The notes beneath the pieces were generated by a model. It worked only from the letters and a program-made list of their open reading frames with translations. It did no database searches and was not told where the DNA came from. This document shows, piece after piece, positions 2,676 to 40,348 of a DNA stretch of 40,348 nucleotides. The stretch is from contig JAAWQM010000029.1 of NCBI GenBank assembly GCA_022800525.1, positions 1 through 40,348 of the forward strand, read 5' to 3'. Position 1 is the stretch's first letter. The number at the start of each line of letters is the position of its first letter. This stretch comes from Oscillospiraceae bacterium (GTDB lineage Bacteria; Bacillota; Clostridia; Oscillospirales; Oscillospiraceae). The position numbers and the translations under genes are program-made.

Positions 2676-3137
2676 TCAGATGAAAGCGATATACTCGTAT
2701 TTCTTCTGCGCCATGTTGAGGTTGGGGTACTCGGGATGCGCACTGTCAGGGCCATAGACCCAGAATCCCCGCTCCACGATCTTACACCGGCTGTTCCGGT
2801 TGCCCATGCCCACCATGACAAAGTCGTTGTCGCCGTTGGCCTCCACTCTGGTAATGATGAGAAAATCGGGTTCAAAGGTCAGCTCGATAAAATGCTCTTT
2901 ACCGTCACCGATGTAGGTGCCGACCATGTATCTGTGGGATGTTCCTCCAGAGCTGGAGGATAGCGCCCTGTCTGCAGTGGCCTGCGCAGCATTTGCGGCG
3001 GACTGGGCGGCGTCCGCCTTGGCGGCGTTGGCGTTCAGCCCAGCCTCAATGTTCTGATTCATCTGATTGAAGTCGTCCATGCGGATGGGGTCGGACTTGA
3101 CCCACTGGGGCAGGTGATGATTTTGCGTGTAATTCAT
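2676..3137 (-). CDS. Phage tail-fibre-like small protein (MNYT-LPQW family), copy 1
   Basis: This is a 153-residue protein. The start at 3137 is chosen because AAGGAG stands 9 nt upstream and because the paralogue at 10016-10429 begins at the same motif. An upstream extension would read through the inverted repeats. Three parts can be seen: a conserved head (MNYTQNHHLPQWVKSD, then RMDDFN), an Ala-rich probable coiled coil at about residues 35-60, and a tail module that opens GTYIGDG and ends EYIAFI. The tail resembles C-terminal modules of phage tail fibres (a Gly-Tyr beta pattern ending in YxYIAF); this is from memory, not a search. There is no signal peptide. It converges on the giant surface gene. 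Head and tail motifs are shared with the second copy while the middle differs, suggesting a binding module. Role unknown. Confidence 0.7.
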   Translation of the reverse strand: MNYTQNHHLPQWVKSDPIRMDDFNQMNQNIEAGLNANAAKADAAQSAANAAQATADRALSSSSGGTSHRYMVGTYIGDGKEHFIELTFEPDFLIITRVEANGDNDFVMVGMGNRNSRCKIVERGFWVYGPDSAHPEYPNLNMAQKKYEYIAFI

Positions 3138-3223: not shown

Positions 3224-3301
3224 GGCAAAATGCACAAAATCCCGGAACAAATCTGTTGGAATTTGCGTTATGTAACCTCATCGAAAAGCAGGAAATATTT
3301 T

Positions 3302-3335
3302 GAGAGGGATTGAGGATAAATCCTCAATCCCTCTC
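3302..3335 (+). terminator. Conserved hairpin with T-tract before leader, copy 1
   Basis: A perfect 16-bp stem (GAGAGGGATTGAGGAT, loop AA, complement) is followed by CTGTTTTT. A counterpart with compensatory base changes lies at 40097-40129, also directly before the repeat leader. It probably insulates the downstream surface-gene promoter from read-through. Confidence 0.65.
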
Positions 3336-3364: not shown

Positions 3365-3555
3365 TTCCCCCTTACTACCACCTGCTACCAGACTTTCCCA
3401 ACGTGCTACCAGAGCTTCCCCAGTTGACAGCGGGGATGTGCAGTTTACATAAATCTTTCAATTGCTACCAAGCCCCGCATTTTTGCTACCAGCCTTCCTT
3501 TTCAAATCCTCAAACCTCTTGCGCCCCAACGGCCTCCCCCTTCCTCCGCCATCCG
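3365..3555 (+). repeat. Surface-gene leader with phased TGCTACCA repeats, copy 1
   Basis: A non-coding block of about 190 bp is repeated with roughly 90% identity at 40158-40348. It holds direct repeats of TGCTACCA at 3373 (TACTACCA variant), 3383, 3404, 3463 and 3484, with start-to-start spacings of 10, 21, 59 and 21 bp, close to whole DNA turns. A sixth lies at 3656 just before the signal-peptide start. Between the two repeat pairs is TTGACA (3424-3429), followed after 16-17 bp by an A/T-rich TACATAAAT, a possible weak promoter (TTGGCA in the other copy). Most likely an activator-bound promoter and long 5' leader. From here to 3655 I see no other gene. Confidence 0.65.
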
Positions 3556-3689
3556 GTAAGGGGATGACAGATTGGCTGTAAGTCTCCAAAATACGACATT
3601 TCCCGCAATTTTTCCGTATTTTGCAGAAAAAAGTTCAGCCGCCTGAAAATCCCCTTGCTACCAAAACAAAAAGGAGGAAACAATCCACC

Positions 3690-3746
3690 ATGAGAAATCT
3701 CAAAAAGATTCTCGCACTGGTGCTGGCCCTGGTCATGAGCTTGTGA
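3690..3746 (+). other. Signal-peptide start out of frame with giant surface gene
   Basis: AAAGGAGG at 3669-3676 and the ATG at 3690 form a good translation start. The peptide MRNLKKILALVLALVMSL is a typical signal-peptide beginning (basic head, Leu/Ala/Val core). It then hits TGA at 3744-3746. The giant frame starts at a GTG at 3743, overlapping this stop in a different frame, and its first residues look like the tail of an SLH repeat (TAALVYRIATADVKD). A deletion that removed the signal cleavage site and most of the first SLH repeat, and shifted the frame, best explains this. No slippery sequence is visible. Confidence 0.7.
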
Positions 3747-6700
3747 CCGCCGCTCTGGTCTACCGCATCGCTACCGCGGATGTGAAGGACACCCAGAGGG
3801 ACCTTTACACCAACAACCCCTTCACCGACCTCGGCTCCGCCGCCTGGGCCAACGGCTACATCTCCTACGGCTACAACGCGGAGATCCTGAAGGGCAATGG
3901 CGACAACACCTTCACTCCCAACGCCCCCGTCACCGGCTATGCCACCCTGGCCATGATCCTGCGGACCATGGGCTACGGCAAGAACCATGAGTTCGAGGGC
4001 GAAAGCTGGGAAATTCAGACCGCCGCCACCGCGCGGCAGGTGGGTCTGCTCAACGGCGTCACCGCCGCTGATGAGGCCACTCTGGGTCAGGCCGCCCCCC
4101 GCGGCCTGGTTGCTCAGATCCTGTTCAACGCCCTGCTCCAGCCCACTGTGAAGTTCAACATCAACACCCCCTACAACTACGCGCCGGATGCTGAAACCCT
4201 GGGCAAGCAGAAGTTCGGTCTGGAGGAAATCGAGGGCGTGGTCACCGCCAACGAGTACGCCGATCTGTACGCCAACACCACTCTGGCCGCCAACAAGACC
4301 AGACTGAACGTGAACGGCGTGGACTACCTGCTTAACGAGACCAAGACCACTCTTGACGACATTGGCGAGAGCAAGCTGGCTTATGTCCGCACCGTCGGCA
4401 ACCAGCCCGCCAAGACCGTTCTCGTCATCGCGGACAGCGGCAGGAACACCGTGAGCGAGACGCCCGACGAGAAGCGGGTGGACGCTCTTCTGTCCGACGC
4501 CAGCCTGTCCCGCAACGCTGAGACGGAGAGCTACATCAACTTCAGCAAGGACTTCCGCTGGCAGTCCGACTGGCGGATTCGCTACGAGATCAACTTCCTG
4601 AGCACAAGCGCTGACAGAGACGCCGCTGAGCGCGAGTATGAGAACGAGCGCCTGAGCACCGGCTGGACGGTCAGCCTGAAGGATTTCCAGTCCTACATCA
4701 ACAATAACCCCACCACTGTGAACGTCAGCGTCAACGGCAGCGATACAGTGGTGATGTACCGCTGGACCTATCAGGCCGCTTTCCAGCCCGACGCCGTAAT
4801 CAGCGCCGGTCACCAGACCAACATCAAGACCATCTTCGACACGGCTGACCGCTTCACCGAAGTCAACGTCAGCCGCGACGCCTACACCTACGGCGAAGTC
4901 TACGTCGGCACCTCCAGCCTGAAGGACGTTTCCGACACCATGTCCTACAAGCAGTTTGTTGAGACCTACATCAACCAGGACACCGAGGCCGGCGTCTCCG
5001 GCAACGAGAAGGGCAACTGGCTGAAAGTCATCGACAACGACGCCGACGGCATTGCCGACTACATCCTCAAGGTGGTCTACACCACCGCCCAGGTTGAGGC
5101 CGTCAAGGACGGCTCCGCCACCCTGGACGTCGCCGTGCGCAGCACCCGCATCAACGACGGCGATGAAATCAACCAGCTCACCTCCCAGCCGGTCGTCAGC
5201 GACGACGAGCTGACCGCCGGCGACGTGGTCTACTACGCCGTCATCGACGGCAAGGCGCAGACCTACAAGGCCACTCCCGTCACCGCCAAGATCAACAGCG
5301 TCAACCGCAACGACCGGGTTGCCACTGCTGATGACGACACCAAGTACGCGGAAGCCGGCGTCCATGAGCACATCTACAACCCCGACTATGCCAAGGACGT
5401 CCGTGAGATGGCCGGAGGCGTCAGCTACGACATGTACCTGGGCCGCGGCGATTATCTGCTGGCCTTCGTCAAGACTGCCGCCACCAGCTTCACCCTCATC
5501 ACCGACGGCTACTACAACAGCTCCCGCAACGGCGATGAGTACGCTGTCAAGGCTTACATTGACGGCAAGCAGGTCAACACCGACGTCAGCCGCAACGGCG
5601 TCATGTTCATTGACCGCAACGCCGCCGGCGTTCAGAACAACGGCTGGAACGCCATCCGCGAGCTGGGCCAGCCCACCAACTCCCTCAACGCCAAGGGCGC
5701 CGTGCTCAAGACCACCGTGGCCGGTCTGGATGCCGACGGCAACCTGATCCCCGTGGACTACAGCTCCGTGTATGAGCGCGGCAGCCATGCCATGATCGCC
5801 TTCCGGAAGCAGGCGACCAGCGCCGTCCAGGAGGAGCGCTACAATTCCATCGTGGGCAACTCCTACGCCACCGGCACCGCTTACACCACCAACGGCGTGG
5901 GCAATGCCGTCGCCTACAACAGCAATGATGGCGAGGTTGAGATCCGCGCCCTGAGCAGCACCATCTACTACTTCGTCTACCGCGACAACCGCGGCGAGAT
6001 TCAGGTCGCCCAGTACAACGGCTACGCCAGCGTGCCCAGCCTCAGCGCCGCTGAGATGGCGAAGATCGAGGACATCTACGCCGTCGGCACCCTGACCGAG
6101 CGCGTGAGTACCGGAACCGACCGCGAGCGCGCCTACTACACCGCCAACGTGGTCGTCGTCGAGTTCAGCCAGCCCTACAAGCAGTATGGTGAGCAGATTC
6201 TGGTTGTGGACGATCCCGTGGTCGCCTCCAGCATCCAGATTGACAACGTCAAGGTCATCCGCTCCAGCGGCGCTGCCGAGGAAATCGACATCGACATGAC
6301 CAGCTCCTGGATTCGGACCTACGACAAGGCTGGCCGCAAGTGCGTGCAGCCCGGCCTGTACAACCTGTATCCCACCAGCACCGACGGTCTTTACACCATT
6401 TCCTCCCTGGATCACGATGAGATTGCCGGCTACAACTTCGACGCCGGCCAGATCAGCACCGCCCTGGGCACCGTTAACTATGACTATGCCGAGGTCAACT
6501 CCATGGTCTGGAACAACGCCGCTGACACCTATGGTCCCGGCAGCCACAACGAGTACAAGCTCACCGCTGATACCAGGTACTACACCCTGAGCTACAGCGG
6601 AACCGGTATTGACGCGAAGGCTTCCCTGACCGAGAGCGCCCTGGCCTCCGTCCTTGACCCCCGCGTTGACGAGAGCGAGCTCAAGGCCAAGGTCGAGTTC

Positions 6701-9700
6701 GTCTATGACCTGGAGCGCGATCCCAACAGCCTGCCCGACAACCGGTACTACCGTTACGGCAACCGCAATGACGTCCTGGTCGCCTACGACGGAGCTGGCA
6801 ACGCCATCTATGTCGTCTCCTTCGCCAACATCGGCGACAGCGCAGCCAACGGCGCGGGCGGACACGTCAGCTACTCCAACTACGCCCAGAACGTCTGGGA
6901 GTACGTCATGCCCAGCGCGGTGGCCCACAGCACCAACGCCCCCGCTGTGGAGCTGCGTTCCCAGAACGCAGCGAACCTGCATGAAGTGGTTGCCGATCTC
7001 AACGGCGTCTACACCACCCGCACCGGCAACACCTTCAACACCGTCATTCCCTATTCCGTATGGTCCAAGTACGCTGGCGATGAGGCGATTCTGTACTTCA
7101 CCCCCGCCGCCAACAACCAGATTTCCGTCAGCGGGACCACCACCTTCCGTTATGAGTCCTTCCCTGTGAACGCCGAGGCCATTCCTGTCTTCAACATTGC
7201 CAATGATGTGACCGTCGGTCCCATCACTGTGATGAGTCAGGCGGACGGCGGCACCACCGAAGCGTACTTCTACAACTACACCTTCACCGCGCCCAATCAC
7301 AATTCCGCTTTCACGAACGTTCCCGCCGGAACCGCCGTCACCAAGGACAGCGTTCTCAATAACGGCAGCCGCTACGTGAATCTGGAGGCTTTTGTCCTGG
7401 CGTTCGGCACTCCCAAGGGCGCAACCGCCGTCTGGAGCTTCACCACCGAGGGCGGCGAGAACTTCACCATCACCGTGAAGAACCCTGTTGACGGTTCCGC
7501 GGCTGTGACCGAGAACAACGCTCCCCGGGATGTCGATATCCTGGACGAGGTTGCCGACAGCTTCACCGTCACCGTCACCGCCGAGTGCGGCGAGACGGAG
7601 CACACCACCACCTACACCTCCACCGCAACGCCTCCAGACCCCAGCGGCAATGTGACCGTGACGGTCAACTTCGTGGTTGGCGGCGAGACTGTCTATTCCA
7701 TTCCTCTGACCAAGGCCATCGTGAACGGGGCCATCACGCTGGACTGGACCAATGATGTTGTCCTGAACGGCTGGGCCAATATCAACGAGATTCAGTCCGT
7801 GACCGCCAGCAATGGACAGACCTGCACACAGTCCGGCTTCGACTGGGTAATCCCCGCCGGCGCTGATGAGACTGCCCTGACCGTGACTGTCAGCTACGAC
7901 ACCGAGAACGAGACCCCTGGTCCTGGTCCCGGCCTGCTGCCCCCTCTGTCCAAGGGCGGACGCACCCTGTCGATGACCTCCATGCTGTACGGCGTGTGGG
8001 CCCCCGAGGGCAAGCGTCCTGAGTCCGTAACGGTAAATCGTCCCACCGACGGTACGTTTGTGGTTGGCGATCTGAGCAAGAGCATCATCTATCCCGGTGC
8101 GACTCCTCCTGCCGGGTGCGAGCTGGTGGCCTTCCCTGTCACCGTCGAGGAAACTCTGACCAACGCTGATATCTTCGTGATTGTCAACTCCTGGGTTGAC
8201 CTTGAGGAGGAAAAACCCGACGTTCCTGTCCCCGGTGAAGACGAGCTGCTGCCGTATAGGGCTGAGCTGGATGGCGGCACCTACAAGTTCTATGGCTATG
8301 GCGATGAGTACGCGGAGTTGAGCGAAGATGAAATGAAGACCGCTATGGCCAAAGTTCTTTCCGCTCGCGACAAGGTTACTCTGACCAAGGAAGACATCAA
8401 GATTTCCCCCGATGGCAAAACCGTTTATTACACCCGGAACAACAAGGACTTCCCTGCGGCAATTACCTCTGGCGAGCTGACCTCTGGTTCCTGGAAGAAC
8501 ACCATTGAGCAGTGGGCTGTCTCTTACAAGGGCGAAGTGGTTACTTACGCTGCCCACAATGAGTCCGTGGATGTCGAGAATCTGGATGGCAATTACATTG
8601 TTGTTGATTCCGGCGAAAACGGTGCGTATGATGATCCAACTTCTGTAGTCGATGGGAAAGCGTCATTCACTATGAGCGCAGATAAGGATGTTTCCTTAGT
8701 TGATGTCATCAAAGTGTCTGTTGATGCGACCAGCATTCTTGCTTGGAACTACAAAAAAGTGGATGGCACTTGGACAAACGGAGCGTCCGGCAAGAGCGGC
8801 TGGGTGAAGACAGGCACTGAAGTGCAGGCCGTCACTCCTAATAGTAGTACAACATATACATCTGGTGCGCTGTATCAAGTGCGCAATGGGATGCTGTCTC
8901 TGAAGGACTTGACCGCGAAAGATCTTGAAGGTGCCAACTACATGAGGATTGACCTTGGTGCCTTGACCGCTGACAAAGCGGTTGATGATGTGGTTGCACT
9001 CTCCCTGGATCAGGTCTACAATGTTACTCTGAGTGGCGCGGATATCGGCAAGTATGCTAAGGATGACGATATTCCTGTTGCTGCTTATGGGCTCGCAGAG
9101 GACGATGTTGTTATTGCTCTGAACAATCGAACCCCAGATGCGACTGCCATTAATTGCAGTGGCGTGGCGCGTGTGGGACAGACCTCCAACCAGTATATGG
9201 CCTGGAAAGCGGTTGGGGCAGATGATGAGACAGACGAAGCTGTTTTGTCATTGGATGAGAACCTGGTCGGCAGAGCTGTAGAGAACAAGATTAATCTGAG
9301 TTCCACATCTATGGTGACCGTTCCGGCAGGAGTGACGGTGGTTGTGACATATGCAGGAGAGAGTTCCGCCGAGCTTACTCTGGATACGACTTATTATGTT
9401 GCCCAAAATGCTTCTCTCAAGCTGACTTCCAGCAAAAATGAAACCATCTTCAGCGTGACCGTTGGCGAGAACGACCCCGTGCTGGTAGGCACGCCCGACA
9501 GCTCAGCAGCTACCACGGAGACAATCACGATTGGTTCCGAGGAAGTTGAAATTACTGAGGTTCTTGCTCCCACCGCTGCGATGATTCATATCTCTTCTGA
9601 TAATAAGAAAATTGACGGAAACAGCACTATTGCGGGAACATCTGTAGGGCTTGCTAAGGACGATAAGGGCGGAGATACAACTCAAGGTGGTGTTCTGTAC

Positions 9701-9964
9701 GCTGCAGGTAAGACCGGAGAAATCAGTGTTGTGAAAACGACCAGCCGCCCGAGTGCAAATTGGGAAGTTGATACTACTTACATCATTACTGTCACAAACC
9801 TGGAAGCCGAGGATGGTATTACACTTGAAAAACTTGATGTGAGCAAGTTTGTGTTGATGCCAGTCAATTGCCCGGGTTGGACAATCGATGATGCCAGCAT
9901 TCGTTTTGAAACTGACGGAACCGCAACCCTGACCTTGAGAGTTACAACCCCAGAGAGCTTTTAA
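3743..9964 (+). CDS. Giant SLH-containing surface protein (5' frame break)
   Basis: The open frame of about 2,073 codons has no native start. The only plausible one is the out-of-frame ATG at 3690. Two SLH-like segments follow, roughly residues 28-75 (TDLGSAAWANGYISYG...) and 80-140. SLH domains bind pyruvylated secondary wall polymers. The long middle is rich in Asn, Tyr, Thr and Val with almost no Cys, and looks like repeated beta domains. A Pro/Gly linker (ETPGPGPGLLPP) lies near residue 1390. A module at about 1510 (GGTYKFYGYG) is shared with the upstream giant gene. Codons are almost exclusively C/G-ending up to about nt 8000 and clearly relaxed after about 8600, suggesting a different origin for the C-terminal modules. 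It is preceded by the iteron leader and followed by a terminator. As read it may be untranslated, a silent cassette, or a sequencing or assembly error. Confidence 0.8.
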   Translation: MTAALVYRIATADVKDTQRDLYTNNPFTDLGSAAWANGYISYGYNAEILKGNGDNTFTPNAPVTGYATLAMILRTMGYGKNHEFEGESWEIQTAATARQVGLLNGVTAADEATLGQAAPRGLVAQILFNALLQPTVKFNINTPYNYAPDAETLGKQKFGLEEIEGVVTANEYADLYANTTLAANKTRLNVNGVDYLLNETKTTLDDIGESKLAYVRTVGNQPAKTVLVIADSGRNTVSETPDEKRVDALLSDASLSRNAETESYINFSKDFRWQSDWRIRYEINFLSTSADRDAAEREYENERLSTGWTVSLKDFQSYINNNPTTVNVSVNGSDTVVMYRWTYQAAFQPDAVISAGHQTNIKTIFDTADRFTEVNVSRDAYTYGEVYVGTSSLKDVSDTMSYKQFVETYINQDTEAGVSGNEKGNWLKVIDNDADGIADYILKVVYTTAQVEAVKDGSATLDVAVRSTRINDGDEINQLTSQPVVSDDELTAGDVVYYAVIDGKAQTYKATPVTAKINSVNRNDRVATADDDTKYAEAGVHEHIYNPDYAKDVREMAGGVSYDMYLGRGDYLLAFVKTAATSFTLITDGYYNSSRNGDEYAVKAYIDGKQVNTDVSRNGVMFIDRNAAGVQNNGWNAIRELGQPTNSLNAKGAVLKTTVAGLDADGNLIPVDYSSVYERGSHAMIAFRKQATSAVQEERYNSIVGNSYATGTAYTTNGVGNAVAYNSNDGEVEIRALSSTIYYFVYRDNRGEIQVAQYNGYASVPSLSAAEMAKIEDIYAVGTLTERVSTGTDRERAYYTANVVVVEFSQPYKQYGEQILVVDDPVVASSIQIDNVKVIRSSGAAEEIDIDMTSSWIRTYDKAGRKCVQPGLYNLYPTSTDGLYTISSLDHDEIAGYNFDAGQISTALGTVNYDYAEVNSMVWNNAADTYGPGSHNEYKLTADTRYYTLSYSGTGIDAKASLTESALASVLDPRVDESELKAKVEFVYDLERDPNSLPDNRYYRYGNRNDVLVAYDGAGNAIYVVSFANIGDSAANGAGGHVSYSNYAQNVWEYVMPSAVAHSTNAPAVELRSQNAANLHEVVADLNGVYTTRTGNTFNTVIPYSVWSKYAGDEAILYFTPAANNQISVSGTTTFRYESFPVNAEAIPVFNIANDVTVGPITVMSQADGGTTEAYFYNYTFTAPNHNSAFTNVPAGTAVTKDSVLNNGSRYVNLEAFVLAFGTPKGATAVWSFTTEGGENFTITVKNPVDGSAAVTENNAPRDVDILDEVADSFTVTVTAECGETEHTTTYTSTATPPDPSGNVTVTVNFVVGGETVYSIPLTKAIVNGAITLDWTNDVVLNGWANINEIQSVTASNGQTCTQSGFDWVIPAGADETALTVTVSYDTENETPGPGPGLLPPLSKGGRTLSMTSMLYGVWAPEGKRPESVTVNRPTDGTFVVGDLSKSIIYPGATPPAGCELVAFPVTVEETLTNADIFVIVNSWVDLEEEKPDVPVPGEDELLPYRAELDGGTYKFYGYGDEYAELSEDEMKTAMAKVLSARDKVTLTKEDIKISPDGKTVYYTRNNKDFPAAITSGELTSGSWKNTIEQWAVSYKGEVVTYAAHNESVDVENLDGNYIVVDSGENGAYDDPTSVVDGKASFTMSADKDVSLVDVIKVSVDATSILAWNYKKVDGTWTNGASGKSGWVKTGTEVQAVTPNSSTTYTSGALYQVRNGMLSLKDLTAKDLEGANYMRIDLGALTADKAVDDVVALSLDQVYNVTLSGADIGKYAKDDDIPVAAYGLAEDDVVIALNNRTPDATAINCSGVARVGQTSNQYMAWKAVGADDETDEAVLSLDENLVGRAVENKINLSSTSMVTVPAGVTVVVTYAGESSAELTLDTTYYVAQNASLKLTSSKNETIFSVTVGENDPVLVGTPDSSAATTETITIGSEEVEITEVLAPTAAMIHISSDNKKIDGNSTIAGTSVGLAKDDKGGDTTQGGVLYAAGKTGEISVVKTTSRPSANWEVDTTYIITVTNLEAEDGITLEKLDVSKFVLMPVNCPGWTIDDASIRFETDGTATLTLRVTTPESF

Positions 9965-9975
9965 TAATTGAGTTT

Positions 9976-10017
9976 ACCCCCCAAGGGCGAATGCCCTTGG
10001 GGGGTTCCCCTGTTTTT
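9976..10017 (+). terminator. Terminator after second giant gene
   Basis: A 13-bp stem (ACCCCCCAAGGGC, loop GAAT, complement) at 9976-10005 is followed by CCCCTGTTTTT. It lies 12 nt after the giant gene's stop and abuts the stop of the convergent tail-like gene. Its core resembles the hairpin after the first giant gene. Confidence 0.75.
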
Positions 10018-10429
10018 ACCTGAAAGCAAGGTAGTCGTAGACAACGCCTTTGCGGTTAAGCGCAGGTCCGTAGGCCCCCTCATACGGTTCGGGATAAACG
10101 ATGAACCCGTCACACATGAGCATCAGCCGGGAGCCCAAGGCGTTCTTTCCCGCAGTCGCGGCGGAGAAACCGCTGAAAGAAGCTGCGCCGCCCTGCGTGG
10201 TGGACTGCTGCATCCCGTTGATGATGACGAAGGAGGGCCGGAAGCCCACGTCGACAATCTGCGCCCCGCCGTTTCCGGTATAGGACCCGGCGGCATAGGG
10301 CTTTTCCGACTGCTGCGCAGCCTGATCCAGCCCTGACTCGATGTTCGCCATGGCGTCGTTGAAGTCCTCCATCCGGATGCGGTCGGACTTGACCCACTGG
10401 GGCAGGTGGTGGTTGGGTGTGTAGTTCAT
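10016..10429 (-). CDS. Phage tail-fibre-like small protein (MNYT-LPQW family), copy 2
   Basis: This 137-residue paralogue of the protein at 2676-3137 has the head MNYTPNHHLPQWVKSD, then RMEDFN and a conserved NIESGL. It has a shorter linker and a tail module from YAAGSYTGNG to the end YDYLAFR. The start has AAGGAG 9 nt upstream. The two copies agree best in the first 35 residues and at the ends (Y.xG.Y.G.G, F.P.F.I, Y.YIAF or YLAF) and differ in the middle, as expected of a mounting domain with a variable display domain. There is no signal peptide, so if it works with the neighbouring surface protein it must leave the cell by another route. It could also be a domesticated prophage remnant, though no other phage gene is nearby. 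Confidence 0.7.
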   Translation of the reverse strand: MNYTPNHHLPQWVKSDRIRMEDFNDAMANIESGLDQAAQQSEKPYAAGSYTGNGGAQIVDVGFRPSFVIINGMQQSTTQGGAASFSGFSAATAGKNALGSRLMLMCDGFIVYPEPYEGAYGPALNRKGVVYDYLAFR

Positions 10430-39967: not shown

Positions 39968-40096
39968 AAGCTCCCCAAAATGTAACGGCGTTTTTGAATG
40001 GTATTTGAGCGTAGTGCTGGAATGAGGATTGCTTTTCAGTCACAAATGCGCCAAAATCCGTATTATGTAACCCAAATATTTCTGAAGCCGCGTTTG

Positions 40097-40157: not shown

Positions 40158-40348
40158 TTTCTCCCTGCTACCACCTGCTACCAGACTTTCCCAACGTGCT
40201 ACCAGAACTCCCCCAGTTGGCAGCGGGGATGTGAGGTTTACATAAATCCATCAATTGCTACCAAACCCCGCATTTTTGCTACCAGACTTCCTTTTCAAAA
40301 TCTCGAACCCCTTGCGCCCCAACGACCTCCCCCTCCCTCCGCCATCCG
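40158..40348 (+). repeat. Surface-gene leader with phased TGCTACCA repeats, copy 2
   Basis: About 90% identical to 3365-3555 and cut by the window edge. Perfect TGCTACCA repeats start at 40166, 40176, 40197, 40256 and 40277: spacings 10, 21, 59 and 21, exactly as in copy 1. In copy 1 the block leads to a signal peptide and giant surface gene, so another such gene is expected within a few hundred bases to the right. Confidence 0.7.

What the first reader, a model, noticed from the sequence alone, without database searches (positions are those of the whole stretch)
3365..3555. Duplicated leader with helically phased TGCTACCA repeats (also 40158-40348)
Five TGCTACCA units recur with identical start spacings of 10, 21, 59 and 21 bp in two leaders 37 kb apart. 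The spacings are near multiples of the DNA helical turn, so one protein could bind all units on the same face. The leaders are about 90% identical though non-coding. This looks like a shared, dedicated control element for a family of giant surface genes, perhaps with an unknown regulator. A seed for recombination between family members is a second possibility.
Basis: partly seen in the sequence, partly recalled or inferred. Interest (0 to 1): 0.8.

Follow-up and report, generated by a model that had tools for sequence, protein, structure and literature searches.

The report
Phased control element for S-layer genes
The window carries two of seven copies of a DNA element, built from evenly phased TGCTACCA sites, that sits in front of a family of giant surface-layer genes in one bacterial genus, and it appears to be half of a two-leader system in which one gene has an ordinary promoter and the others carry this element.

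Summary
The repeats are real: two leaders 91% identical, units spaced 10/21/59/21 (the first unit of leader 1 is TACTACCA). The genome holds seven such leaders and no other exact 21-bp pair. In the genus the last pair stays 20-22 bp apart in 23 of 23 leaders read, while the DNA between units diverges; the full pattern is kept in 12 of 23. So it is a protein-binding DNA array dedicated to SLH surface genes. The binder is unidentified: Rep_3 is absent from the genome, LytTR from one 92%-complete genome that has the array.

New: (1) the same genes have a second leader, "class B", with a fixed sigma-A-type promoter and a structured RNA without an Rfam match, once in each of 14 of 25 genomes; array leaders share no promoter across species. 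(2) Both leaders share a downstream block homogenised within genomes, so the genes recombine. (3) 15 of 23 array leaders have inverted TTATGTAAAC-like boxes, 173-176 or 183-185 bp apart; the same box in tandem precedes spoIIM-xerD in 20 of 25 genomes and equals a published XerD arm of dif.

Best reading: a phased control or silencing platform on reserve S-layer genes; XerD-linked switching is the bold version, unproven.

The parts
3268..3277 (+). X box of leader 1 (TTATGTAACC), XerD-arm-like
   Evidence: 175 bp from X'
3302..3335 (+). terminator-like hairpin upstream of the array (15 pairs, T-rich tail)
3373..3380 (+). unit 1 of leader 1 (TACTACCA)
3383..3390 (+). unit 2 of leader 1
3404..3411 (+). 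unit 3 of leader 1
3443..3452 (-). X' box of leader 1 (GTTTACATAA on +, TTATGTAAAC on -), 20 bp before unit 4
3463..3470 (+). unit 4 of leader 1
3484..3491 (+). unit 5 of leader 1
3555..3689 (+). shared tail (GGTAAGGGG to the start codon), alike in the class B leader of the same genome; contains the extra unit 3656-3663 and RBS AGGAGG 3672-3677
3690..3746 (+). start codon and truncated signal-peptide frame (18 codons, then TGA): broken start of the SLH gene
3743..9964 (+). giant surface gene with SLH domain (2073-aa ORF from GTG)
10016..10429 (-). small convergent gene, N-terminus MNYTPNHHLPQWVKSDRIRMEDFN, weakly tail-fibre-like
2676..3137 (-). second small convergent gene of the same type, behind the ORF ending at 2605
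40063..40072 (+). X box of leader 2
40166..40284 (+). five units of leader 2 (40166, 40176, 40197, 40256, 40277)
40236..40245 (-). X' box of leader 2

Best explanation
The leader is a cis-acting DNA element ('class A') in front of reserve members of an SLH surface-layer gene family. SHOWN: an array of TGCTACCA-type sites that, in this genome, stands only before these genes; sites kept over species of the genus while the DNA between them diverges; a separate single-copy leader ('class B') with a fixed sigma-A-type promoter and a conserved, foldable RNA on one gene of the same family; within-genome likeness of the block that both leader classes share, which means recombination. INFERRED: one DNA-binding protein occupies the units on one face of the helix and forms a complex that sets, most likely silences or makes conditional, transcription of class A genes, while class B drives the S-layer gene in use; recombination in the shared block changes which gene stands behind class B. 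In part of the genus the complex also includes two inverted boxes that look like XerD half sites.
For: Seven leaders, 14 of 14 exact pairs. Last pair 20-22 bp apart in 23 of 23 leaders from 12 genomes. Over nine leaders of six species anchored at X', pairwise identity is 1.00 at unit 4 and 0.90 at the unit 5 core, against 0.31, 0.59, 0.59 and 0.47 in the stretches around them. Class B once in each of 14 of 25 genomes; promoter TTGACA (TTGACT in one)-17/18-TAAACT at a fixed place in 14 of 14; class A promoter-like matches in 9 of 21 against 7.9 expected by shuffling. Shared-block identity 0.94 within genomes (13 A-B pairs, five of them own) against 0.77 between (196 pairs).
Against: No binder identified; no expression data. 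Lack of a sigma-70 match does not prove silence: another sigma factor could use X' and unit 4, whose spacing is rigid. Five own-genome tails share one weak promoter-like match (9 of 12 letters) inside the shared block. One class A gene is an intact 1712-aa ORF (G273). 17 of 21 class A leaders show no terminator after unit 1 by my scan. 11 of 25 genomes gave no class B match. Genomes are fragmented assemblies; many leaders end contigs.
Confidence: 0.45

Rival explanations
1. Ordinary regulated promoter: the units are operator sites of an activator or the target of an alternative sigma factor that turns class A genes on under some condition; recombination of the tails is an unrelated by-product of homology.
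For: X' to unit 4 is 20 bp in 15 of 15 leaders with X', which puts TTKACA 16 bp from TACCAA, promoter-like in layout; intact class A gene in G273.
Against: No -10 consensus; sigma-70 matches at chance level; 8 of 23 leaders lack X'; strong terminators between array and gene in some relatives.
Confidence: 0.33
2. Site-specific recombination element: XerD, with a partner that binds TGCTACCA, synapses class A leaders and moves S-layer cassettes, like the Xer1/Vpma or RecV/cwpV switches.
For: The X box equals the right arm of a predicted dif of Myxococcus; tandem X boxes before spoIIM in 20 of 25 genomes, xerD seen next in 19 of 20; of 11 exact TTATGTAAAC in the genome eight are in class A leaders and two at spoIIM-xerD; X and X' inverted, distances in two groups one helical turn apart; homology between own-genome copies starts at unit 1 although upstream sequences are unrelated.
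Against: 8 of 23 class A leaders have no X/X' by pattern, and tails are alike in such genomes too (G234 1.00, G307 0.95); units 1-3 are forward in 14 of 14 X-X' segments; no XerC-like arm beside X; class B has no array; the variant TTATGTCAAC occurs at seven other places, none in these leaders.
Confidence: 0.17
3. Passive repeat: the array is only the edge of a block kept alike by gene conversion and binds nothing.
For: Own-genome copies are homogenised.
Against: Across species the units are kept while the DNA between them diverges.
Confidence: 0.05

Closest known systems
Campylobacter fetus sap S-layer switching (recalled; only named in the passages of PMC5634654 seen)
   Same: several S-layer genes with a shared 5' block, one expression leader, recombination in the shared block
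   Different: here the reserve genes carry their own conserved array and the expression leader a structured RNA; switching not demonstrated
Vpma / Xer1 of Mycoplasma agalactiae (PMC5634654, passages seen)
   Same: surface-gene family, Xer-family recombinase suspected
   Different: 8 of 23 array leaders lack the XerD-like boxes; no rearrangement seen
cwpV switch of Clostridioides difficile (PMC2784873, passages seen)
   Same: inverted boxes before a giant cell-wall gene (195 bp apart there, 173-185 here), terminator-like hairpins, Xer-family recombinase there
   Different: boxes of 10 bp here, imperfect 21-bp repeats there; segment not found inverted here (0 of 14)
LytTR-type regulator sites (direct repeats about two helical turns apart; recalled)
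   Same: pairs of short direct repeats 21 bp apart
   Different: motif differs; G234 (92% complete) has the array but no LytTR match
Rep_3 plasmid iterons
   Same: TGCTACCA arrays lie beside Rep_3 genes in 4 of 4 Hymenobacter loci tested
   Different: no Rep_3 match in this genome and in only 2 of 25 of the genus

Membership tests
LytTR-regulated promoter | a LytTR protein in every genome with the element | tested here: not met
   23 of 25 genomes match; G234 (92% complete) and G305 (71%) have the array but no match at E<=0.001
Rep_3 iteron origin | Rep_3 initiator in the genome | tested here: not met
   0 in own genome, 2 of 25 in genus
Xer recombination site (dif-like) | XerD arm | tested here: inconclusive
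   X/X' boxes in 15 of 23 leaders and equal to a published predicted dif arm; 8 of 23 have none; binding not tested
Xer recombination site (dif-like) | XerC arm across a 6-8 bp centre | tested here: not met
   a Firmicutes-type dif pattern (recalled) with up to 3 mismatches hit in own genome only the spoIIM-xerD tandem
Invertible switch (cwpV type) | segment seen in both orientations | tested here: not met
   units 1-3 forward in 14 of 14 segments, one assembly per species
One-expression-site surface variation (sap/Vpma type) | single expression leader, several alternative genes with a shared 5' block | tested here: met
   class B once in 14 of 25 genomes; seven array leaders in own genome; shared block
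One-expression-site surface variation (sap/Vpma type) | demonstrated switching of expression | not testable with these tools
   needs RNA and long reads

The most novel reading that the evidence does not exclude
A new kind of S-layer switch in which housekeeping XerD, controlled through tandem copies of its own half site, assembles with an unknown TGCTACCA-binding protein on reserve S-layer genes and governs their exchange into the single class B expression leader; S-layer genes travel with small phage-tail-fibre-like genes, beside a phage-particle gene cluster, so that surface and particle specificity change together.
Probability: 0.12. Interest if true: 0.88.

Novelty: new variant of a known kind. 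Interest (0 to 1): 0.62.

Why it matters
The data give a concrete, testable architecture for a large S-layer gene family: one expression leader with a structured RNA that Rfam does not list, several reserve leaders with a phased array, and a possible tie to XerD. If right, it adds a genus-wide surface-variation system and an unexpected regulatory role for a chromosome-dimer recombinase.

Tried and rejected
LytTR regulator: rejected as the general binder. Rep_3/iteron: rejected for this genome, although it explains the four Hymenobacter arrays tested. IS21-type ends: no IstB-like motif in the 58 remote loci by a crude motif scan; not pursued. Canonical dif in the leader: not found. Inversion of the X-X' segment: not seen. 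Rfam: over eight loci (four with class B) only two matches far below cut-off; over six class B loci six matches at E up to 10, of which only skipping-rope RNA in L164 reaches its cut-off and does not cover the leader. tblastn of one small convergent protein in phages: no match. Control patterns in viral contigs: TGCTACCA arrays 12 stretches, two scrambled octamers 1 each. Remote TGCTACCA arrays (46 stretches) were chosen by the pattern itself, many are plain tandem repeats, some inside ORFs; I draw nothing from them for this genus.

Limits and dropped rows: the tails of own C75b, own C21, class B of G302 and of G301 were missing or irregular, class B of G311 too short, and G312 and the second G305 leader were not yet known. 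Those two leaders were first read on the wrong strand and added, so lack them. G304a, G234 and G300a were also misread; one search replaces them. L071 and L074 have no leader left on the contig. X' was chosen by pattern, so its 0.94 identity is partly by construction; the X' of G312 has one mismatch. Shuffles are mononucleotide within 50-base blocks. The Rayleigh values (n 14, p about 3e-5) ignore relatedness. mostly repeats.

Full report
WHAT WAS CHECKED. The repeats are in the window as described, except that the first unit of leader 1 is TACTACCA. Exact TGCTACCA occurs 12 times in the window against 0.81 expected; 0 of 100 shuffles reach that. The two leaders are 91% identical over 194 positions.

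GENOME-WIDE. The window is contig C75 of a 2.87 Mb, 112-contig genome. TGCTACCA-N13-TGCTACCA without mismatch occurs 14 times, as two pairs in each of seven leaders on contigs C14 (two), C21, C42, C75 (two) and C87. With up to 3 mismatches the pattern gave 32 hits and the reverse-read control 65, so only exact hits are used. All seven leaders keep 21/59/21, with unit 1 ten bases before unit 2, as TACTACCA in three. Upstream sequences fall into four groups without visible likeness to each other; homology starts at about unit 1. Five of the seven leaders end their contigs shortly downstream. No exact pair was found in 299 other genomes of the family, five of them of the same genus. Two leaders of genome G304 of this genus are found whole in contigs named Oscillospiraceae bacterium S10_Bin2 (53 of 53 thirty-base words each), so the family is probably Oscillospiraceae.

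THE GENES. Leader 1 precedes a 2073-aa ORF with an SLH domain. Its ATG frame (3690) stops after 18 codons, and the gene behind C14b lacks the start region; an intact start exists on C54. The right ends of contigs C75 and C21 both overlap the start of C54 by 83 identical bases, so one or both lead into that gene.

RELATIVES. Searches of 25 genomes of the genus with one leader (15 of 25 matched, mostly by the tail) and with an RBS-start pattern (11 of 25) gave further leaders. I read 23 array ('class A') leaders from 12 genomes: seven own, 16 others. Units 4-5 are 21 bp apart in 16, 22 in six and 20 in one. Unit 5 is degenerate (GTCTACCA or TACTACCA) in some. Units 2-3 at 21, 3-4 at 58-59 and 4-5 at 21 are all kept in 12 of 23, seven own; in the others unit 3 is lost or the first cluster is irregular. 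Over nine leaders of six species anchored at X', pairwise identity is 1.00 at unit 4 and 0.90 at the unit 5 core, against 0.31 (X' to unit 4), 0.59 (units 4 to 5), 0.59 (after unit 5) and 0.47 (before X'). This is the footprint expected of bound sites in DNA.

A SECOND LEADER. The same gene starts are also found behind a quite different leader, 'class B'. A DNA search found it exactly once in each of 14 of 25 genomes, own genome included (C58), and not in 11. It has TTGACA-17/18-TAAACT (TTGACT in one genome) 76-80 bases before its core in 14 of 14. Four of the seven class B leaders printed have TGTTACGCTTCTGTTAC further upstream, which resembles a WalR box (recalled). Its core is nearly invariant; the consensus fold has 26 pairs, six with changes on both sides in at least one sequence, and a small covariation term (-1.14 of -24 kcal/mol). 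No Rfam family reached its cut-off there. Class A leaders have promoter-like matches in 9 of 21, against 7.9 expected from shuffles; five of these nine leaders, all own, share one weak match inside the shared tail.

SHARED BLOCK. From GGTAAGGGG to the ribosome-binding site the two classes share sequence. A and B are 0.94 identical on average within a genome (13 pairs), 0.77 between genomes (196 pairs, highest 0.92); the nearest B is the own-genome B for 10 of 13 A tails. The three exceptions are G303a and both G310 leaders. In G273 the likeness starts at GTAAGGGG and runs about 930 bases, some 826 of them inside the gene, at 87%, after which the genes differ. So class A and B genes recombine.

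X BOXES. Fifteen of 23 class A leaders have TTATGTMAAC-like X, 103-116 bp before unit 1, and its inverse X' 20 bp before unit 4. X-X' is 173-176 bp in six and 183-185 in nine, none between; shared descent limits what this proves. Eight leaders (G305 two, G307, G310 two, G234, G300 two) have none by pattern. Of the 11 exact TTATGTAAAC in the genome, eight are in class A leaders, two stand in tandem 189 bp before spoIIM-xerD, one is elsewhere; seven TTATGTCAAC lie elsewhere, and reversed controls gave nine hits. The XerD protein scores 342.8 bits for TIGR02225 (cut-off 329.6); the SpoIIM-like protein is below its cut-off (48.8 of 100.2). The tandem (up to 3 mismatches) occurs in 20 of 25 genomes, each time next to spoIIM, with xerD seen beyond it in 19 of 20; three further hits lie elsewhere, one of them the X of a class A leader; reversed controls gave five hits. 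A table of predicted dif sites has the same arm in Myxococcus (PMC2731167, passage seen). That XerD binds X is plausible but untested.

MECHANISM. Shown: a DNA element with spaced sites tied to one gene family; a single-copy promoter leader for the same family; recombination between them. Inferred: protein occupancy, silencing or conditional control of class A genes, choice of the expressed gene by recombination. XerD at X cannot be essential to that recombination, since tails are alike in genomes without X boxes (G234, G307).

LITERATURE. Searches of the open library did not show this system in their listings: LytTR with S-layer, XerD with SMC and terminus, S-layer with site-specific recombination and XerC, XerD with dif, SLH domain with phase variation and Oscillospiraceae, C. 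fetus sapA, S-layer with tailocins, XerD with spoIIM or autoregulation (453 papers, eight listed), S-layer with XerD and antigenic variation. Papers seen in passages only: PMC2731167, PMC3025954, PMC5634654, PMC2784873; the rest as listings.

Noticed in passing
own C58:133-231 (L166); L155, L158, L163 and others: Class B leader RNA: near-invariant core GATACGGGACCGGCTAGCCACGGTATGTG, six of 26 predicted pairs with two-sided changes, no Rfam match at cut-off; candidate new structured RNA before S-layer genes.
   Followed up: partly
window 2676-3137 and 10016-10429; L029:541-1071, L029:17309-17824, L030:6044-6448, L192, L194, L186, L191: Small genes convergent with giant surface ORFs, conserved N-terminus and variable C-terminus; seen behind five own-genome ORFs and in G302, G303, G318, G234, not behind the C87 ORF nor, by the motif used, in G273 or G184. 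PHROG tail matches are weak, best 1.8e-5.
   Followed up: partly
L189, L190, L201, L193, L197: In five genomes the class B leader is divergent from a phage terminase gene (portal confirmed in two); in G029:C83 and G303:C36 the other end of the phage-like cluster runs into a class A leader facing outwards.
   Followed up: partly
G000:C24:22149-22172 (L217): Tandem TTATGTAAAC boxes before spoIIM-xerD, conserved in 20 of 25 genomes: possible autoregulation of xerD.
   Followed up: partly
L081, L093, L117, L119: Hymenobacter TGCTACCA arrays lie beside Rep_3 initiator genes, so they look like plasmid iterons.
   Followed up: partly
L102, L111, L115, L080: Saccharofermentans genome RUI411 with TGCTACCA/TGGTAGCA dyads at about 22-bp spacing in at least four contigs.
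   Followed up: no
L164:1910-2001: skipping-rope RNA (56 bits, cut-off 36.7) near the class B leader of G318.
   Followed up: no
L188/L187: 127 bases 100% identical some 370-430 bases after the two SLH genes of G273.
   Followed up: no
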